From Bifidobacterium breve (GTDB lineage Bacteria; Actinomycetota; Thermoleophilia; Solirubrobacterales; Solirubrobacteraceae), in assembly GCA_945889475.1 (NCBI GenBank), contig CAMDBT010000001.1, forward strand, positions 1 through 64,000: a stretch of 64,000 nucleotides of DNA, read 5' to 3'. Within the stretch, counting starts at the first letter, position 1; each line of letters opens with the position of its first letter. The notes beneath the pieces are model-generated. The model ran no database searches. It was not told the DNA's origin and saw only the letters and a program-made list of their open reading frames with translations. Positions 3,301-51,941 of this stretch are shown one piece after another. A program made the translations under genes and the position numbers.

Positions 3301-3421
3301 CGCCGAGACCGTCAACGAGGTTGCCGCCGCAATCAGCGGCCAAGGCTTCGAACCGACGCCCAGCGTGGCAGCCTGCAGCTACTGCGACTTCAGGATCGCC
3401 TGCCCTGCTGCCGAGCTCTAA
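380..3421 (+). CDS. UvrD-like helicase fused to PD-(D/E)XK nuclease with Fe-S cysteines (AdnA/AdnB-like)
   Basis: About 1013 residues from GTG 380; earlier in-frame starts would run into the divergent phosphatase gene. The N-terminus has a clear Walker A (AGGAGSGKTTA, residues about 26-36). Walker B is unusual (LLIDDAERLS), motif III is degenerate, and the stretch before motif VI (YLAITRAS) is short. The C-terminus is a RecB-type nuclease: SASDIESYRACPLRYK near 782, GRVDRVD near 897 and LIDYKTGK near 911. Cys792, 999, 1002 and 1008 form the C-xn-C-x2-C-x5-C set that binds a 4Fe-4S cluster in AddB and Adn proteins. Likely role: DNA end processing in double-strand break repair. A partner subunit is not in the window. 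Its stop overlaps the convergent PAC2 gene by 4 bases. Confidence 0.8.
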   Translation: MPESSLQLTDEQRRIAQFAGRSLVVAGGAGSGKTTALAARYAWLVGEAGVEPEAVVALSDSPAAADRLRRLVEQRLERGFAELPVSATSDFAARLLREEMPQSGLDPFVATLSGADRLAMLIDRVDQLELREHDFAGRPVKLLASLIAQIDAQKAMLISADQCAQRAANAAGAGAALEREFAALYASHQAMLAEEGALDHGDLIFGALSLLERPEVQERFSGRYSQLLIDDAERLSLAERTLVLAAAAQLGGLTAVGNPDCAPTSEVTGGDVNLAAIAAQSDAERIDLKKSLRCREQIVLAGQAVLEQRLSPPLTGEPGGSVRGWRCASERAQAQAIAREVEHLIQSGSGAESIAVVVSSLRTEGRAIAAALDERAVPHQLGASDQLFGRAEVKDVLAWLRLLTSPGDASATVRALARAPIELRAVDLARCIQIARRRKLDMVSALRAATESPQIPPEARERIVAFLKLQAQAAAALDELRPDRFVHRLIDRLGLRRQQLFAAQADVVDGLRCLSRFEALAGRFAERSPQASGREFAEYVVAVAEAGLREGAEAAGGEQLAAGKVAVVEIGLARGLSFDHVFVASMERQRRVDDELRKLSYLAITRASQSVTLSYSEHRERGELQPPSQLAEAALAAAGSQWEQRSEELFGPDEALQGAFNELRDELLGDLPRVAGTFADLRLDNDLDLTLGVVRYLELAKLAAVIGRPAEQDVEGALAQANAVLLQSATATQREALESSPLDELILSAEHDARARAAATVRRGEPSLEAFLPRRGAGLVLSASDIESYRACPLRYKFARVFRIPQEPTLNQRFGILIHQVLERYHQSDGRTTEELLVLLEEGWRRGGFGESDQEDQLRAKAEASLRLYHQRTAKEESRPVWFEKAFQFKLGEHTLRGRVDRVDLLPGGGYELIDYKTGKPRTQAELHEDIQLSLYAVAAREAWHVESVLQSYHYILDDEKIPVPAGEIDRDWIAETVNEVAAAISGQGFEPTPSVAACSYCDFRIACPAAEL

Positions 3422-7457: not shown

Positions 7458-8183
7458 ATGACCGAGCTGCCCTGGCTGATCCTGCCTACCTATAACGAAG
7501 CTGAGAACATCGCTGGGATTGTTAGCGCCTCAGCGCAAACGCTCGCGGCCGCCTCGCCAGACGGCTTTCGGATCCTGATCGTCGATGACAACTCGCCCGA
7601 CGGCACCGGCCAGATCGGCGACCGTTTGGCCAGCGAGCAGAGCGAAGTTGAGGTGCTCCACCGCACCAGCCGTGACGGGCTCGGCCCGGCCTACCTCGCA
7701 GGCTTTGAGCACGCCCTCAGTAACGGCGCCGCCTACGTGATGGAGATGGACAGCGACTTCTCGCACGACCCGGCCGACCTCGCGCGGCTGCTGAGCGCGG
7801 TCCGCGACGGCGGCGCCGACGTAGCGCTCGGCTCGCGCTACGTTCCTGGCGGTGGAATCGAGAACTGGAGCGCCGGCCGACGTGCCATTAGCCGCGGCGG
7901 CTCGCTCTACGCACGGCTGATCCTGAGCCTGCCGGTCAGCGACTTGACCGGCGGCTTCAAGTGCTTTCGCGCCGAGGTGCTGCGCGCGATCGACCTGCCA
8001 TCGGTGACAGCGCGTGGCTACGCCGTCAACATTGAGCTGACCTACCGCGCAATCGGGCGCGGCTTCAAAGTCGTGGAAATCCCGATCGTCTTCCGCGACC
8101 GTATCGCCGGCAGCTCGAAGATGTCTTGGCAGATCACGGCCGAAGCGGCCTGGCTGGTTCCCGTGATGCGGCTTCGCCGCTAA
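7458..8183 (+). CDS. Polyprenol-phosphate mannosyltransferase (DPM1/Ppm-like GT2)
   Basis: 241 residues. GT2 motifs: LPTYNEAENI near 8, ILIVDDNSPDGTGQIGD near 36, MEMDSDFSHDP (DXD-type metal site) near 95, and GSRYVPGGGIENW near 119, all close to dolichyl-phosphate mannose synthase and the catalytic domain of actinobacterial Ppm1. It makes polyprenyl-phosphate-mannose from GDP-mannose on the cytoplasmic face; that donor feeds lipoglycan and protein mannosylation. There is no fused membrane or N-acyltransferase domain. Convergent with the next gene, sharing CTAA at 8180-8183. Confidence 0.9.
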   Translation: MTELPWLILPTYNEAENIAGIVSASAQTLAAASPDGFRILIVDDNSPDGTGQIGDRLASEQSEVEVLHRTSRDGLGPAYLAGFEHALSNGAAYVMEMDSDFSHDPADLARLLSAVRDGGADVALGSRYVPGGGIENWSAGRRAISRGGSLYARLILSLPVSDLTGGFKCFRAEVLRAIDLPSVTARGYAVNIELTYRAIGRGFKVVEIPIVFRDRIAGSSKMSWQITAEAAWLVPVMRLRR

Positions 8184-8942: not shown

Positions 8943-9326
8943 ATGGCGGCGTGGCTACACACCTGTTACCGGATCGGCGAGATCGACAGGTCGGTCGCCT
9001 TCTATAACGCGCTCGGTTTCGAAGAGGTTGGGCGGATGCCAATCCGCGACGAGGCGATCAACGTCTTCATGAACATCCCCGGCGACGGCGATATGCCGCG
9101 GCTTGAGCTGACTTACAACTTCGGCGTTGATGAGTACGAACTAGGTACCGGTTACAACCACATCGCAATTACGGCGGCCAACCTCGACGAAACTCTGACG
9201 CGGCTTGCGAGCCAAGGCATTGAGCCCGAGCGCGCGCCCTACTCGATCCGCGAAGGCGGTTCACGGCTCTGTTTCGTGCGCGACCCGGACGGTTACCGGA
9301 TTGAGCTGATCGAGCGTGACGACTGA
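8943..9326 (+). CDS. Glyoxalase I-like VOC protein (lactoylglutathione lyase family)
   Basis: 127 residues from ATG 8943. Family features are TCYRIGEIDRSVAFYNALGFEEV at the start, LELTYNFGVDEYELGTGYNHIAI in the middle and FVRDPDGYRIELIE at the end; the His and Glu positions are those of the metal site. The family isomerises the hemithioacetal of methylglyoxal and a thiol. In actinobacteria mycothiol, not glutathione, would be the thiol (inference). An upstream in-frame start at 8877 would overlap the divergent MBL gene and is not used. The end overlaps the ppx gene by 11 bases. Confidence 0.88.
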   Translation: MAAWLHTCYRIGEIDRSVAFYNALGFEEVGRMPIRDEAINVFMNIPGDGDMPRLELTYNFGVDEYELGTGYNHIAITAANLDETLTRLASQGIEPERAPYSIREGGSRLCFVRDPDGYRIELIERDD

Positions 9327-10929
9327 GGGCGACTCCCGGCTGGCGGTAATCGACCTAGGGTCGAACTCATTCCGGCTTGTCGTCTTCGAAGCCCACTCCG
9401 GCGCCGCCTCGCCCGAGCGGCGGCTCAGCTCTTTCTGGCGCGCCGATGACCCTGAGCCACCGTTAGGCGCTTGGTGGAAACGCACCGATGAGATCTACGA
9501 GCCGGTGAGGATCCTCGCCGGTGGCGCCGAGACCGGCGAGCTGACCGCGGAGGGGCTCGACCGTGCTCTGGCAACGATCGACGTCTTCGCGCAATTCTGC
9601 GCCGCTTCGGGCTTGCCGCCGGAGGAGATCGAAGCGGTAGCGACCAGCGCGATCCGCGACGCGCTGAACGCCGAATCGGTCTTAGCCAGCGCGCGCGACG
9701 AACTGGGGCTGACGATCCGCGTGCTCTCCCCGCAGGAGGAAGCTCGCTACGGCTACCTCGCGGCGATCAACTCGACCGACCTGCAGAGCGGCATCGTGCT
9801 CGACCTCGGCGGCGGCTCGATGCAGCTGATCGAAGTTGATGCGCGCGCCGCGCTGACGCTCGCCTCATGGCCGCTCGGAGCGGTACGGATGACCGAGCGC
9901 TTCCTGCCGAGCGACGAGCCAGCCGGCGCGAAAGCGATCGCCAAACTGCGTGCCCACGTCGCGAGCGAGCTCGAAGCCGCAAGCTGGCTCGAAAACGGCG
10001 GGCCGCGGATTATTGGGATCGGCGGCACGGTGCGAAACCTCGCGGCGGCAATTCAACGCGCCGAGTCGATCGCCGAGTTTGGAGTTCAGGGCTTCAAGAT
10101 CAAGCGCGGCCAGCTCGATCAACTGATCGAGCGGCTCGCTGAGATGGATCCCGCCGACCGAAGCTGCGTCGCCGGGATAAAGCCGGCCCGCGGCGACATC
10201 ATCCTGGCCGGCGCGATCGTCGTCGCCGAGGTGCTCGAGGCTGGCGGCTTCAAGGCGATCGAAGTGACCGAAGCGGGCCTACGGGAAGGGATCTTCTTCG
10301 AGCGGCTGCTGGCCGAGCGAGACGAGCCGCTGCTCGATGACGTGCGCCGCGCCAGCGTGCTCAACCTCGCCGCCCAGTACGACCCGCATGCCGCGCACAC
10401 ACGCCATGTCGCGGCGCTTGCGCTGGGACTCTTCGATCAGCTCGCCGAGGCCGGGCTGCACAGCGGCGATGACGATGAACGGGAGCTACTCACCGCCGCT
10501 TGCCTGCTGCACGACATCGGCGTCGCCGTTGACTACGACGACCACCACAAGCACTCACGCTATCTGGTGCTCAACGCCGGGCTACCAGGCTTCACACCGC
10601 GCGAAGTGGCGCTGATCGGCCAGATCGTCCGCTACCACCGCAAGGGGATGCCGAGCCTCGGGCCGTTTGCGGGATTGATGAAGGACGGTGACGCTGAGCT
10701 ACTTGACCGCTGCGCTTTGCTGCTGCGGCTGGCCGAGGATCTCGAGCGCAGCCGCGACCAGTTGGTCAAGGAAACCCACACCTCGGTCAACGGCGCCAGC
10801 GTTACGCTCCAACTTGTCGCCGACGGCCCGGCCGAGGTGCCGCGCTGGGCGGTATCGCGCGAGGGAGAGCTGTTCGAGCGAGCATTTCTGAGAACCCTTG
10901 AGGTCGCCGCCGAGGTCCCGGCCGAATAA
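9316..10929 (+). CDS. ppx: Exopolyphosphatase / guanosine pentaphosphatase (Ppx/GppA) with HD domain
   Basis: 537 residues from GTG 9316. The ASKHA ATPase-like half shows VIDLGSNSFRLVVFE (phosphate 1), ATSAIRDA, LDLGGGSMQLIEV (phosphate 2) and GIGGTVRNLA. The C-terminal half has an HD-type domain (HTRHVAAL and LLHDIG) and a KHSRYLVLN segment, as in long Ppx/GppA enzymes. It hydrolyses inorganic polyphosphate and/or pppGpp, linking phosphate stores to the stringent response. The start overlaps the upstream glyoxalase gene, suggesting co-translation. Confidence 0.9.
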   Translation: MTTEGDSRLAVIDLGSNSFRLVVFEAHSGAASPERRLSSFWRADDPEPPLGAWWKRTDEIYEPVRILAGGAETGELTAEGLDRALATIDVFAQFCAASGLPPEEIEAVATSAIRDALNAESVLASARDELGLTIRVLSPQEEARYGYLAAINSTDLQSGIVLDLGGGSMQLIEVDARAALTLASWPLGAVRMTERFLPSDEPAGAKAIAKLRAHVASELEAASWLENGGPRIIGIGGTVRNLAAAIQRAESIAEFGVQGFKIKRGQLDQLIERLAEMDPADRSCVAGIKPARGDIILAGAIVVAEVLEAGGFKAIEVTEAGLREGIFFERLLAERDEPLLDDVRRASVLNLAAQYDPHAAHTRHVAALALGLFDQLAEAGLHSGDDDERELLTAACLLHDIGVAVDYDDHHKHSRYLVLNAGLPGFTPREVALIGQIVRYHRKGMPSLGPFAGLMKDGDAELLDRCALLLRLAEDLERSRDQLVKETHTSVNGASVTLQLVADGPAEVPRWAVSREGELFERAFLRTLEVAAEVPAE

Positions 10930-10980
10930 TCGCCTAATCCGCCTCGCGAGCGGATACGGTTCCGACACATTCATTCAAGC

Positions 10981-10988
10981 GGAGGTGA
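10981..10988 (+). promoter_or_regulatory. Strong ribosome binding site of the DUF805 gene
   Basis: The bases GGAGGTGA stand 4 bases before ATG 10993, a near-perfect complement to the 16S rRNA tail. Most genes in this window have weak sites, so this gene is probably highly translated. Confidence 0.8.
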
Positions 10989-10992
10989 CCTG

Positions 10993-11370
10993 ATGGGCTT
11001 TACGGAGGCAACCAGCACATGCCTGAAGAAATCGGTCGACTGGAGCGGACGAGCATCGCGGTCGGAGTTCTGGTGGTTCGAACTCGCGCAACTGATCTTC
11101 ATTGTGATCGCCGCAATCATTGACCAGATAGTCGGCACGCAGATCTTTTACATCCTCGCAATCATCGCGCTGATCTTGCCGTCAATCGCCGTTTTCATAA
11201 GACGCCTCCACGACACCGACCGGACCGGCTGGTGGTTTTGGATTCAGCTGCTGCCGCTGATCGGACTGATTGTGATCCTCGTCTTCATGCTCACCGGGAG
11301 CGACGCTGGCGACAACAAGTACGGGCCGAACCCTCAGGGCTCGGCTGCTGGGCCGCCGACCGCCGCCTAG
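10993..11370 (+). CDS. DUF805 family membrane protein
   Basis: 125 residues. The start KKSVDWSGRASRSEFWWFEL and the later RRLHDTDRTGWW are the hallmark DUF805 motifs (F-x-GRA-R-x-E-FW and RRLHD-x-x-x-SGWW). There are three or four hydrophobic segments between residues 30 and 105, and a short polar C-terminus (NKYGPNPQG) also typical of the family. An inner-membrane protein of unknown function. Confidence 0.92.
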   Translation: MGFTEATSTCLKKSVDWSGRASRSEFWWFELAQLIFIVIAAIIDQIVGTQIFYILAIIALILPSIAVFIRRLHDTDRTGWWFWIQLLPLIGLIVILVFMLTGSDAGDNKYGPNPQGSAAGPPTAA

Positions 11371-11388
11371 CGCCTCAACGACTGAGAG

Positions 11389-11432
11389 CGACCTGCCTCT
11401 GGCCCTGCGGCCTGCGGCAGGTCGTCTTCGTC
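11389..11432 (+). terminator. Candidate intrinsic terminator after the DUF805 gene
   Basis: An inverted repeat with a perfect 9-base stem (CGACCTGCC at 11389-11397 and GGCAGGTCG at 11416-11424) encloses an 18-base GC-rich loop and is followed by TCTTCGTC. The T-tract is weak, so termination may be partial. Confidence 0.45.
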
Positions 11433-11474
11433 GAGCCGCGCGGCCGCCGTCCTAATCGAGCAAGGAGACCGGCC

Positions 11475-12329
11475 ATGTGCACCAACTTCAAGGGCAAGAC
11501 GGCCAAGGACGGCTCAGTTGTCGTCGGGCGAACGATGGAGTTCCCAGTCCTGATGCCGTGGTCGCTCGGCGCGCTTCCAGCAAGTTACGCAGGGAAGGGC
11601 GCGGCCCCCAAGGGAAGCTCCGCCGACGGCAAGGCTTGGACGGCCAAGCACGGGGTGGTCGGGATGATCGGATTCGGAAAGGCCAACTGGATCGTCGACG
11701 GCATCAACGAGGCCGGCGTCTCGGCCCACATGCTCTACATGCCCGGCTCCTGCACCTACCAAGAGTTCAAAGGTGATGGCAGCGACCTGTCCGAGCTTGA
11801 CCTGATCGCCTTCCTGCTCGGAACCTGCTCGTCGCTGAAGGAGGTTCGCGACGCGGTCGCGACGATCAACATCTGGGGAGTTGACCCGGGGATGGGCTTC
11901 GCGCCGCCGATCCACGTCCTGATGCACGACAAGGACGGATCGCTGGCGATCGAGTTCCACCCCGAGGGCCACCGCGTGGTCGACAACCCACTCGGCGTGG
12001 GCACCAACTCCCCCTACATGGAGTGGCACCACACGAACCTCGGCAACTACGTTGGGCTCTCGACCACCAACCCCGAGGCGATCACAATCAACGGCGTGAA
12101 GATCGAGGCTCTCGGCCAAGGCCAGGGGCTGATGGGGATCCCCGGCGACTACACGCCGCCTTCGCGCTACGTCCGCGCGCTGGCGCAGGTGACGGCCTCC
12201 GACCAGCCAGCCGACGGCCACGAGTCCGAACAGCTCGTGCTGCACATCCTCAACAGCTTCGACATCACGCCGGGACTGATCCGCGAGCCTGGCCCGACCG
12301 GCGACCTCGTGGACGAGGTAACGGAGTAA
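11475..12329 (+). CDS. Linear amide C-N hydrolase (choloylglycine hydrolase/penicillin V acylase family), apparently cut short by a stop codon
   Basis: 284 residues from ATG 11475, with an AAGGAG site at 11462-11467. Cys2, right after Met1 (MCTNF), is the expected N-terminal nucleophile of this Ntn family; GRTMEFPV supplies the conserved Arg near residue 20, and the middle resembles conjugated bile acid hydrolases and penicillin V acylases. Typical members are about 330-350 residues. Here TAA at 12327-12329 ends the frame early, yet the same frame continues past it with 51 codons of family-like sequence (separate entry). Either a recently damaged gene, a shorter working enzyme, or a base error in the assembly. 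Confidence 0.8.
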   Translation: MCTNFKGKTAKDGSVVVGRTMEFPVLMPWSLGALPASYAGKGAAPKGSSADGKAWTAKHGVVGMIGFGKANWIVDGINEAGVSAHMLYMPGSCTYQEFKGDGSDLSELDLIAFLLGTCSSLKEVRDAVATINIWGVDPGMGFAPPIHVLMHDKDGSLAIEFHPEGHRVVDNPLGVGTNSPYMEWHHTNLGNYVGLSTTNPEAITINGVKIEALGQGQGLMGIPGDYTPPSRYVRALAQVTASDQPADGHESEQLVLHILNSFDITPGLIREPGPTGDLVDEVTE

Positions 12330-12485
12330 TTGACGATCTCGAATCTGACCGAGCGCAGGTACTCGTACCGGACGATCGGCGACCCGACGACCTACGTGAT
12401 CGAGCTCGGCAAGACCGACTTCAGTGGCGAGCCTCGCACGGCGCCGCTGCCGACCAAGGGCGACTTCACGCCGGCGACGATCTAG
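12330..12485 (+). pseudogene. Severed in-frame C-terminus of the linear amide C-N hydrolase
   Basis: Directly after the TAA at 12327-12329, and in the same frame, 51 codons run to a TAG at 12483-12485. They read LTISNLTERRYSYRTIGDPT and then YVIELGKTDFS. This resembles the last strands of choloylglycine hydrolases, where a Trp/Tyr-Thr segment, a Y-Y/F-RTY/W motif and a short acidic IDL-DFS tail close the protein. The TAG shares its bases with the stop of the opposing 12482 gene, the pattern of other true gene ends in this window. So the original gene most likely ended here. Confidence 0.7.
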
Positions 12486-12838
12486 GGCTGATCGCGCCGG
12501 AGCGGAAGTTCGCCCGGGTCATTAGGGAACACGGGCATATCCTCCTCGCCAGGGCCGACCGGCACGACGATCGGCACTTCGACCGGCTGCTCGCGCGCTA
12601 CCGCCTCAGCGACCTCGTCTTCGATCCCGAAGGCTGAGCCATCGCACTGGATCCGCACGCGCTTGGTCGGCACGCGGTCATCGGAGATCACCGGCAGCCC
12701 CCACAGCTCATCCCAACCGATCAGCTGGTGATCGATCGGGTTGAGCAGGATCGCGTTGGCAGGCACCGGGCAGCTGGCGTTGTGCTGGTCGAGCGCCTGA
12801 CGGATCGCGCCTAGGTTCTTGCCTTCAAACTTGCTCAC
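12482..12838 (-). CDS. Unrecognised 118-residue protein
   Basis: A soluble protein beginning MSKFEGKNLGAIRQALDQHN. It has two Cys, a NPIDHQLIGWDELWGLPV segment, and an acidic, proline-rich C-terminus. No family is recognised. Its start overlaps the stop of the upstream MFS gene by 4 bases (12835-12838), so the two are probably co-expressed. GC-rich third positions support real coding. Confidence 0.65.
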   Translation of the reverse strand: MSKFEGKNLGAIRQALDQHNASCPVPANAILLNPIDHQLIGWDELWGLPVISDDRVPTKRVRIQCDGSAFGIEDEVAEAVAREQPVEVPIVVPVGPGEEDMPVFPNDPGELPLRRDQP

Positions 12839-30884: not shown

Positions 30885-31724
30885 ATGACGATGCTGGAGA
30901 TCTCGCTGTTCACCGACCCGGGCTGTCCGTGGGCCTTCTCGGCCGAGCCGCTGCGCCGCAAGATCGAGTGGCTCTATGGCGACCACGCCTCGTGGGAGCT
31001 AGTGATGGTTGGCCTCGCAGAAGACCCGGCCGAGTATGAGGCCAAGGGGTTCACTACGGCGGTGATGGCCGCCGGCGCAGAGCAGATCGCGCAGGCCCAC
31101 GGAATGCCGATCAACACCATCGAGAGCGAACGCCTGAGCGCCACGATCCCCGCCTGCCGCGCCGTCGTCGCCGCACGGCTCAACTCGCCCGGCCACCAGC
31201 AGACGCTGCTACGCGCGATCCAAGTCCGCGGCTTTACCGGAGAGCCGATCGACGATCCAGCAACTATTGCCGCTGCCGCCGCCGACGCCGAGATCGACGC
31301 CCACGATCTGGAGCAGTGGTCGCTGGAACCAGCGACGCTCGAGGCGCTGGCGCGGGACATCGAGCGCGCCCGTCATCCATTGCCCGCAGCGTTGGTGCTC
31401 GACGAGCGGCTCGCCGACTGGGAAGGCGGCCGCCGCTACACCTGCCCCTCCTACGAGATCAACCTCGATGGTGGCGAGCCGATCGCAATTCCCGGCTTCC
31501 AGCCTTGGCCGGCCTACGACGTGGTGCTCGCCAACCTCGCCCCCGATCTGCCGCGCCGCGAGCCTCCGATAAACGTCAGCGAGATTCTCGATTGGGCTGC
31601 CGAGCCGCTGGCAACGCGCGAGGTCGCGGTCGTGATGGGGATCGAACACGACGAGGCAACTACCGCTTTGACTGAGGTCGCTCAGCGCCAAGCTGCTGGC
31701 GCCGACGCCTACTGGACGCTCTAG
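30885..31724 (+). CDS. DsbA-family (FrnE/HCCA isomerase-like) thioredoxin-fold protein
   Basis: 279 residues, 5 bases after ettA. TDPGCPWAFSAEP near the N-terminus is the active-site loop of the cytoplasmic DsbA/2-hydroxychromene-2-carboxylate isomerase group, with a single Cys followed by Pro-Trp rather than CxxC. A helical insertion (about 60-160) follows, and a cis-Pro-like PSYEIN loop near 190. No signal peptide, so cytoplasmic. The substrate is unknown. Convergent with the HAD gene, sharing CTAG. Confidence 0.8.
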   Translation: MTMLEISLFTDPGCPWAFSAEPLRRKIEWLYGDHASWELVMVGLAEDPAEYEAKGFTTAVMAAGAEQIAQAHGMPINTIESERLSATIPACRAVVAARLNSPGHQQTLLRAIQVRGFTGEPIDDPATIAAAAADAEIDAHDLEQWSLEPATLEALARDIERARHPLPAALVLDERLADWEGGRRYTCPSYEINLDGGEPIAIPGFQPWPAYDVVLANLAPDLPRREPPINVSEILDWAAEPLATREVAVVMGIEHDEATTALTEVAQRQAAGADAYWTL

Positions 31725-51032: not shown

Positions 51033-51941
51033 GTGGCGATCACGCTAACCCAATTACGCAGTTTCCTCGCCGTGATCCGCTCCGGCTCGGTAACAGCGGC
51101 GGCCGAGGAACTCGTTGTTACGCAGCCCTCAATCTCAGCCGCCGTTCGAGCGCTGACGCGCGAGCTCGGTACGCCGCTGCTGGAGCGCGACGGCCGCGGC
51201 GTAGCGCCAACCGCCGCGGGGCGCGCCTTCGCGCCATACGCAACCGACGTCATCGGACTGCTCGACCGCGGCCGCGCGGCGGCGATCGAAGCGTCGGGCA
51301 GCGCCGCAAGTGGCCTGCGCATCGCTGCCGTGACGACGGCGGCCGAATCGTTCGTTCCGTTGCTGCTGCAGCGTTACGCCTCGCGCAACCATGACGTTGA
51401 CCTGACGCTCGCGGTCGGCAACCGTGAGCGCGTGCTGACGCTGCTGCTGCGCCGCGAAGCAGATATCGCTTTTGTTGGGCGGCCACCGAGCGGCGGCCGC
51501 GAAGGGCGGATCAAGTCGCAGTCGGTGCGCCCCAACGAGCTGATCCTGGCCGGCGCGCCAGATGAGCCGCTAACACAGCAGGCGACGGTCACCGCAGCGG
51601 AGCTAAATGGAAGCCGCTGGCTGCTGCGCGAGCAGGGCTCAGGCACACGGACGGCCAACGAGGATTACATCGCCGCCAACGGCCTGACGGTGAGGACTTT
51701 GACGCTCGGCTCGAACGGGGCGATCAAGCAGGCCGTGCGGTCAGGGCTCGGGATCTCGTTCCTGGCCCGCGACTCGGTTGCCGGCGAGCTCGAGAGCGGC
51801 GCGCTGGCGGTGATCCCACTAATAAACGTGCCCCCCGGCAGGCCTTGGCACGTGATGCGCTCCTCGGTCGGGCCGAAGTCGGCTCTAGTAGCCGACTTTT
51901 TCGACTTCGCCGTCGCTGAGGCCGACAAGCCTGCCGGCTAA
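51033..51941 (+). CDS. LysR-family transcriptional regulator
   Basis: 302 residues from GTG 51033. The N-terminal helix-turn-helix is LTQLRSFLAVIRSGSVTAAA and TQPSISAAVRALTRELGTPLLERDGR, the LysR pattern. Residues about 90-290 form the two-lobed effector domain (for example RIAAVTTAAESFVPLLL). It sits 58 bases after the CAT tRNA gene. LysR proteins often control a divergent neighbour; here TrpB2 is divergent but the tRNA lies between, so the target is unsure. Confidence 0.93.
   Translation: MAITLTQLRSFLAVIRSGSVTAAAEELVVTQPSISAAVRALTRELGTPLLERDGRGVAPTAAGRAFAPYATDVIGLLDRGRAAAIEASGSAASGLRIAAVTTAAESFVPLLLQRYASRNHDVDLTLAVGNRERVLTLLLRREADIAFVGRPPSGGREGRIKSQSVRPNELILAGAPDEPLTQQATVTAAELNGSRWLLREQGSGTRTANEDYIAANGLTVRTLTLGSNGAIKQAVRSGLGISFLARDSVAGELESGALAVIPLINVPPGRPWHVMRSSVGPKSALVADFFDFAVAEADKPAG

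What the first reader, a model, noticed from the sequence alone, without database searches (positions are those of the whole stretch)
11475..12485. Amide hydrolase gene split by an in-frame TAA with a coherent C-terminus beyond it
The Ntn hydrolase ends at 284 residues, yet the same frame goes on past TAA (12327-12329) for 51 codons of family-like C-terminus. That tail ends at a TAG sharing 4 bases with the opposing gene, a typical real gene end here. A nonsense mutation, read-through, or a base error are all possible. Family members usually have Trp or Tyr at about this place; TAA is one step from a Tyr codon.
Basis: partly seen in the sequence, partly recalled or inferred. Interest (0 to 1): 0.6.

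Follow-up and report, generated by a model that had tools for sequence, protein, structure and literature searches.

The report
Amidase gene with recent nonsense stop
A bile-salt-hydrolase-like enzyme gene in an uncultured actinobacterium carries a premature stop 51 codons before its normal end; all intact relatives compared have tryptophan there, so it is most likely a recently broken copy of a gene that many close relatives lack altogether.

Summary
A choloylglycine-hydrolase/penicillin-V-acylase-like Ntn hydrolase (PF02275, 6.6e-45) starts at 11475 and stops at TAA 12327-12329. The same frame runs 51 more codons to TAG 12483-12485, sharing CTAG with the opposing gene. The open frame alone means little (14 of 41 window genes have at least 51 open codons after their stop); the homology is decisive. 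Four congeners and one genome of another family have an uninterrupted 336-337-residue protein with Trp (TGG) at the TAA and a matching tail (60-70% identical in congeners). The window tail keeps 22 of 25 congener-invariant residues and evolves no faster than intact tails, so the stop is young or the tail is still made. TAA is an ordinary stop here and no ochre-suppressor tRNA was found. The gene sits in a presence/absence slot beside ppx/gppA; at least seven congeners lack it there. Best explanation: a recent nonsense mutation in a dispensable accessory gene. Read-through, reinitiation at the TTG directly after TAA, an active 284-residue form, and a consensus error remain possible without positive support. 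'TAA is one step from Tyr' is true but misleading: close relatives have Trp, two bases away.

The parts
11475..12329 (+). 284-codon ORF of a choloylglycine hydrolase / penicillin V acylase-like Ntn hydrolase, Cys2 as presumed nucleophile, ending at the premature TAA
   Evidence: PF02275 E=6.6e-45; 69-77% identical to four congener proteins
12327..12329 (+). in-frame TAA at the place of an invariant Trp codon (TGG)
   Evidence: codon alignment with seven relatives, all TGG
12324..12332 (+). three-codon patch GAG TAA TTG where congeners have AGC TGG TCN; 6 of 9 bases differ from the nearest congener
12330..12485 (+). orphaned C-terminal part of the same gene, 51 codons and TAG; its first codon is TTG, a possible start
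   Evidence: 60-70% identical to congener C-termini; 22 of 25 congener-invariant residues kept
12482..12838 (-). convergent conserved 118-aa gene without a Pfam match, sharing CTAG with the end of the tail
10993..11370 (+). DUF805 gene, variable neighbour in the same slot
   Evidence: PF05656 1.1e-26; order differs among congeners
9316..10929 (+). Ppx/GppA phosphatase gene, fixed left border of the slot
   Evidence: PF02541 1e-53; found in 16 of 17 genomes of the genus

Best explanation
The gene is a recently inactivated (or being inactivated) allele of a full-length, about 335-residue choloylglycine-hydrolase-family amidase. The TGG for a conserved Trp became TAA, either by one tandem GG-to-AA change or by two successive transitions through TAG or TGA (inferred). 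Translation ends at residue 284, before the conserved C-terminal segment. The presumed catalytic residues (Cys2, Arg19, Asn178, Arg231, assigned from family knowledge) lie before the stop, but the lost segment is part of the family's conserved domain, so the product is probably unstable or inactive (inferred). The loss is tolerated because the gene is accessory: it occupies a slot that is empty in many members of the genus.
For: Four congeners and one genome of another family in the order (G075) run 336-337 residues uninterrupted with TGG at the site; two more distant relatives (G454, G586) also have TGG. Of the 50 distinct genomes with matches, only the window's own shows a stop inside a matched stretch. 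The tail keeps 22 of 25 congener-invariant residues against 166 of 181 in the body. Window-specific amino-acid changes in the tail are 5 of 33 against 21 of 197 in the body (Fisher p=0.55), and intact tails change as fast. Under neutrality over the whole branch about 18 of 33 would be expected; a stop older than about half the branch is rejected (P=0.006; about 0.06 for a third). TAA ends 9 of 42 called genes in the window, this one included. 31 tRNA genes were found, none with anticodon TTA. The gene is absent from the slot in G010, G006, G014, G013, G001, G008 and G003, the last two 99% and 97% complete.
Against: The tail shows no measurable decay, which read-through or reinitiation would also predict. 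TGG to TAA needs two base changes, and the next codon is also changed at a congener-invariant Ser, so this is not a minimal single-base nonsense mutation. Only one genome of the species was available.
Confidence: 0.72

Rival explanations
1. The stop is read through at some rate, so a little full-length enzyme is made (low-level expression through an in-frame stop).
For: Tail under the same constraint as in intact relatives. Belinky et al. 2021 (PMC7918605) report that in-frame stops in bacterial genes are widespread and that such genes keep dN/dS below 1.
Against: No ochre-suppressor tRNA among 31 found in an 82% complete genome. TAA followed by T is a strong termination context in E. coli (general knowledge). 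No notable RNA structure after the stop (z -1.45). No relative shares the stop. The same paper infers that such stops persist only for short evolutionary times, which fits a young polymorphism equally well.
Confidence: 0.07
2. The gene has split into two translationally coupled parts: ribosomes end at TAA and restart at the TTG that follows at once, giving a 51-residue C-terminal peptide that completes the enzyme in trans.
For: TTG directly follows TAA (distance 0); GAGGT lies 10 nt and GGAG 3 nt upstream of it. Termination-reinitiation works at overlaps or very short distances (PMC10666635). The TTG replaces a Ser codon conserved in the congeners.
Against: GAGGT is also present in the intact relatives, so it did not arise for this. 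A start-like codon after a stop arises easily by chance. No other genome shows the arrangement.
Confidence: 0.06
3. The 284-residue protein is a functional shortened form.
For: The body is under purifying selection (window-G012 dN 0.16, dS 0.76) and holds the presumed catalytic residues.
Against: No relative found ends here. The full-length frame of the window and the protein of L003 match Pfam to position 306-307 of 316, the truncated protein only to 266. Constraint on the body mostly reflects time before the stop. The structure prediction failed (pLDDT 30), so stability was not tested.
Confidence: 0.07
4. Error in the assembled consensus sequence.
For: Single, incomplete draft assembly (82% complete, 39 contigs). 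The three-codon patch is unusually divergent (6 of 9 bases, among the five most divergent of 330 three-codon windows).
Against: Several clustered substitutions with the frame kept are not the usual form of a read or indel error. The rest of the gene and the Ppx and opposing genes align to relatives without disruption.
Confidence: 0.08

Closest known systems
Choloylglycine hydrolase family (PF02275; bile salt hydrolases and penicillin V acylases, e.g. PDB 2oqc, 2bjf)
   Same: Same domain from Met1-Cys2; matches the solved enzymes at E about 1e-35 to 1e-37 with the C-terminal segment included in the aligned region
   Different: Reading frame interrupted by TAA before the last 51 codons; Glu22 where 2oqc and 2bjf have Asp; below the NCBIfam cut-offs for bile salt hydrolase and for penicillin V amidase, so substrate not assigned
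In-frame stop codons in bacterial genes under purifying selection (Belinky et al. 2021, PMC7918605)
   Same: A stop within a gene whose downstream part still looks constrained
   Different: That study's main analysis used stops shared between two or more species; this one is seen in one genome only

Membership tests
Choloylglycine hydrolase family PF02275 | Profile score above the curated cut-off | tested here: met
   154.5 bits against 20.4
Choloylglycine hydrolase family PF02275 | Cys nucleophile at the N-terminus (Met-Cys) | tested here: met
   MCTNF, invariant in all congeners; removal of Met inferred
Choloylglycine hydrolase family PF02275 | Complete C-terminal part of the domain in the same polypeptide | tested here: not met
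   ORF ends at profile position 266 of 316; the frame after TAA extends the match to 307
Bile salt hydrolase (NF038245) or penicillin V amidase (NF058572) equivalogs | Score above the equivalog cut-off | tested here: not met
   136 and 154.8 bits against 350 and 600
Suppressor-decoded (recoded TAA) genes | Cognate tRNA with anticodon TTA in the genome | tested here: not met
   31 tRNA genes, none TTA; genome 82% complete
Programmed read-through genes | Stop conserved among orthologues with conserved downstream frame | tested here: not met
   All seven codon-aligned relatives have TGG
Pseudogene by nonsense mutation | Relaxed constraint after the stop | tested here: inconclusive
   No relaxation seen, as expected if the stop is young

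The most novel reading that the evidence does not exclude
The TAA-TTG junction is functional: the enzyme is made as two coupled polypeptides, or as a small amount of full-length protein through an ochre stop, and selection still maintains the tail.
Probability: 0.12. Interest if true: 0.5.

Novelty: already known. Interest (0 to 1): 0.2.

Why it matters
As a nonsense allele it is an ordinary case of gene decay, useful mainly as an annotation point: gene callers will report a 284-residue enzyme that is really a truncated copy. It also marks a slot of gene gain, loss and order change in this genus. If the tail proved to be translated, it would be a clean small case of an enzyme split or read through at an ochre codon.

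Tried and rejected
Genome-wide recoding of TAA: rejected (TAA ends 9 of 42 called genes in the window, no TTA anticodon). A second intact copy in the genome: none found by family search or by DNA. AlphaFold of the read-through form with four relatives: pLDDT 30, not usable, so no fold search was made. RNA structure after the stop: not significant. Recombination between a G012-like body and a G002-like tail: body identity favours G012 (77 against 69%), tail identity G002 (70 against 60-66%), but with 50 codons this was not pursued. The longer ORF from GTG 11232 is an upstream extension; ATG 11475 has AAGGAG upstream and matches the relatives' start. A plasmid search gave only distant relatives. 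One paper search on truncated bile salt hydrolase genes returned mostly Listeria papers, none of which was read.

Full report
Observation. The frame from ATG 11475 ends at TAA 12327-12329 after 284 codons and continues for 51 sense codons to TAG 12483-12485. The TAG shares CTAG with the stop of the opposing 118-codon ORF. The open tail alone is weak evidence, because 14 of 41 genes in this 65% GC window have at least 51 open codons after their stop.

What the gene is. The 284-residue product matches PF02275 at 6.6e-45 up to profile position 266 of 316. When the whole frame is read, the match extends to position 307 across one TAA. Solved relatives are penicillin V acylases and bile salt hydrolases. 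NCBIfam equivalog cut-offs for either activity are not reached by the window or by an intact congener, so the substrate is unknown.

Relatives. Four of 16 congeners carry the gene, 69-77% identical over residues 1-283, each uninterrupted to 336-337 residues. G075, from another family of the order, is 64% identical to the congener protein used as query and also uninterrupted. Two of the relatives are deposited as uncultured Solirubrobacterales MAGs. At the site all seven codon-aligned relatives have TGG. The window reads ACG GAG TAA TTG ACG where congeners read ACN AGC TGG TCN ACG. Asp occurs at the GAG position in G075 and Val at the TTG position in G454, so the neighbouring changes are less odd than they first look. 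TGG to TAA takes two changes; a tandem GG-to-AA event or a path through TAG or TGA would do it (inference).

Age of the stop. The tail is 60-70% identical to congener tails. It keeps 22 of 25 residues invariant in the congeners, against 166 of 181 in the body. Window-specific changes in the tail are 5 of 33, in the body 21 of 197 (p=0.55), and the intact tails of G012 and G011 show 7 of 35 and 10 of 35. From fourfold sites, a tail free of constraint over the whole branch should show about 18 changes of 33. A rough binomial calculation rejects a stop older than about half of the branch (P=0.006) and is borderline at a third (P=0.06). So the stop is young, or the tail is still translated. The calculation rests on few sites and a simple model.

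Decoding. TAA ends 9 of 42 called genes in the window, this one included. Of 31 tRNA genes found in the 82% complete assembly none has anticodon TTA. There is no second copy of the gene or of the site. RNA folding after the stop is unremarkable. A TTG follows the TAA directly, and reinitiation at such distances is documented (PMC10666635), so a split gene cannot be excluded.

Setting. The gene lies between ppx/gppA and the convergent small gene. The order is Ppx-DUF805-CBAH in the window, Ppx-CBAH-DUF805 in G007, G011 and G012, Ppx-CBAH in G002, Ppx-DUF805 in G010, G006, G014 and G013, and Ppx with neither in G001, G008 and G003. The congeners closest by Ppx (90-92%: G010, G006, G014, G013) lack the gene. 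It is thus accessory, which makes tolerance of a nonsense mutation unsurprising.

Conclusion. Most likely a recent nonsense allele of a dispensable amidase gene (0.72). Belinky et al. (PMC7918605) describe in-frame stops in bacterial genes as widespread and short-lived, which fits. Shown: the stop, the homologous tail, Trp in relatives, absence of decay, patchy presence. Inferred: loss of function, the mutational path, dispensability in this strain. Interest is low.

Noticed in passing
window 9316-12838: Slot between ppx/gppA and a conserved small convergent gene where DUF805 and CBAH genes are present, absent or in swapped order among congeners.
   Followed up: partly
window 3418-3421, 8180-8183, 12482-12485, 31721-31724, 51938-51941: Five convergent gene pairs overlap by exactly four bases (CTAG or CTAA).
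   Followed up: partly
L015 (CAMCVN010000013.1): The public record is titled Bifidobacterium breve, but the locus has the same gene content as the window's genus and the matching genome G012 is placed in that genus; the title looks wrong.
   Followed up: no
window 11538-11540: Residue 22 is Glu in the window and its congeners where the distant solved relatives 2oqc and 2bjf have Asp (RTMDF / RNMDI); by family knowledge this Asp is a catalytic residue.
   Followed up: no
L017 (G075) and L025 (G077): Two genomes of another family in the order carry C-termini identical to each other and related to the window's, suggesting transfer of this gene between families.
   Followed up: no
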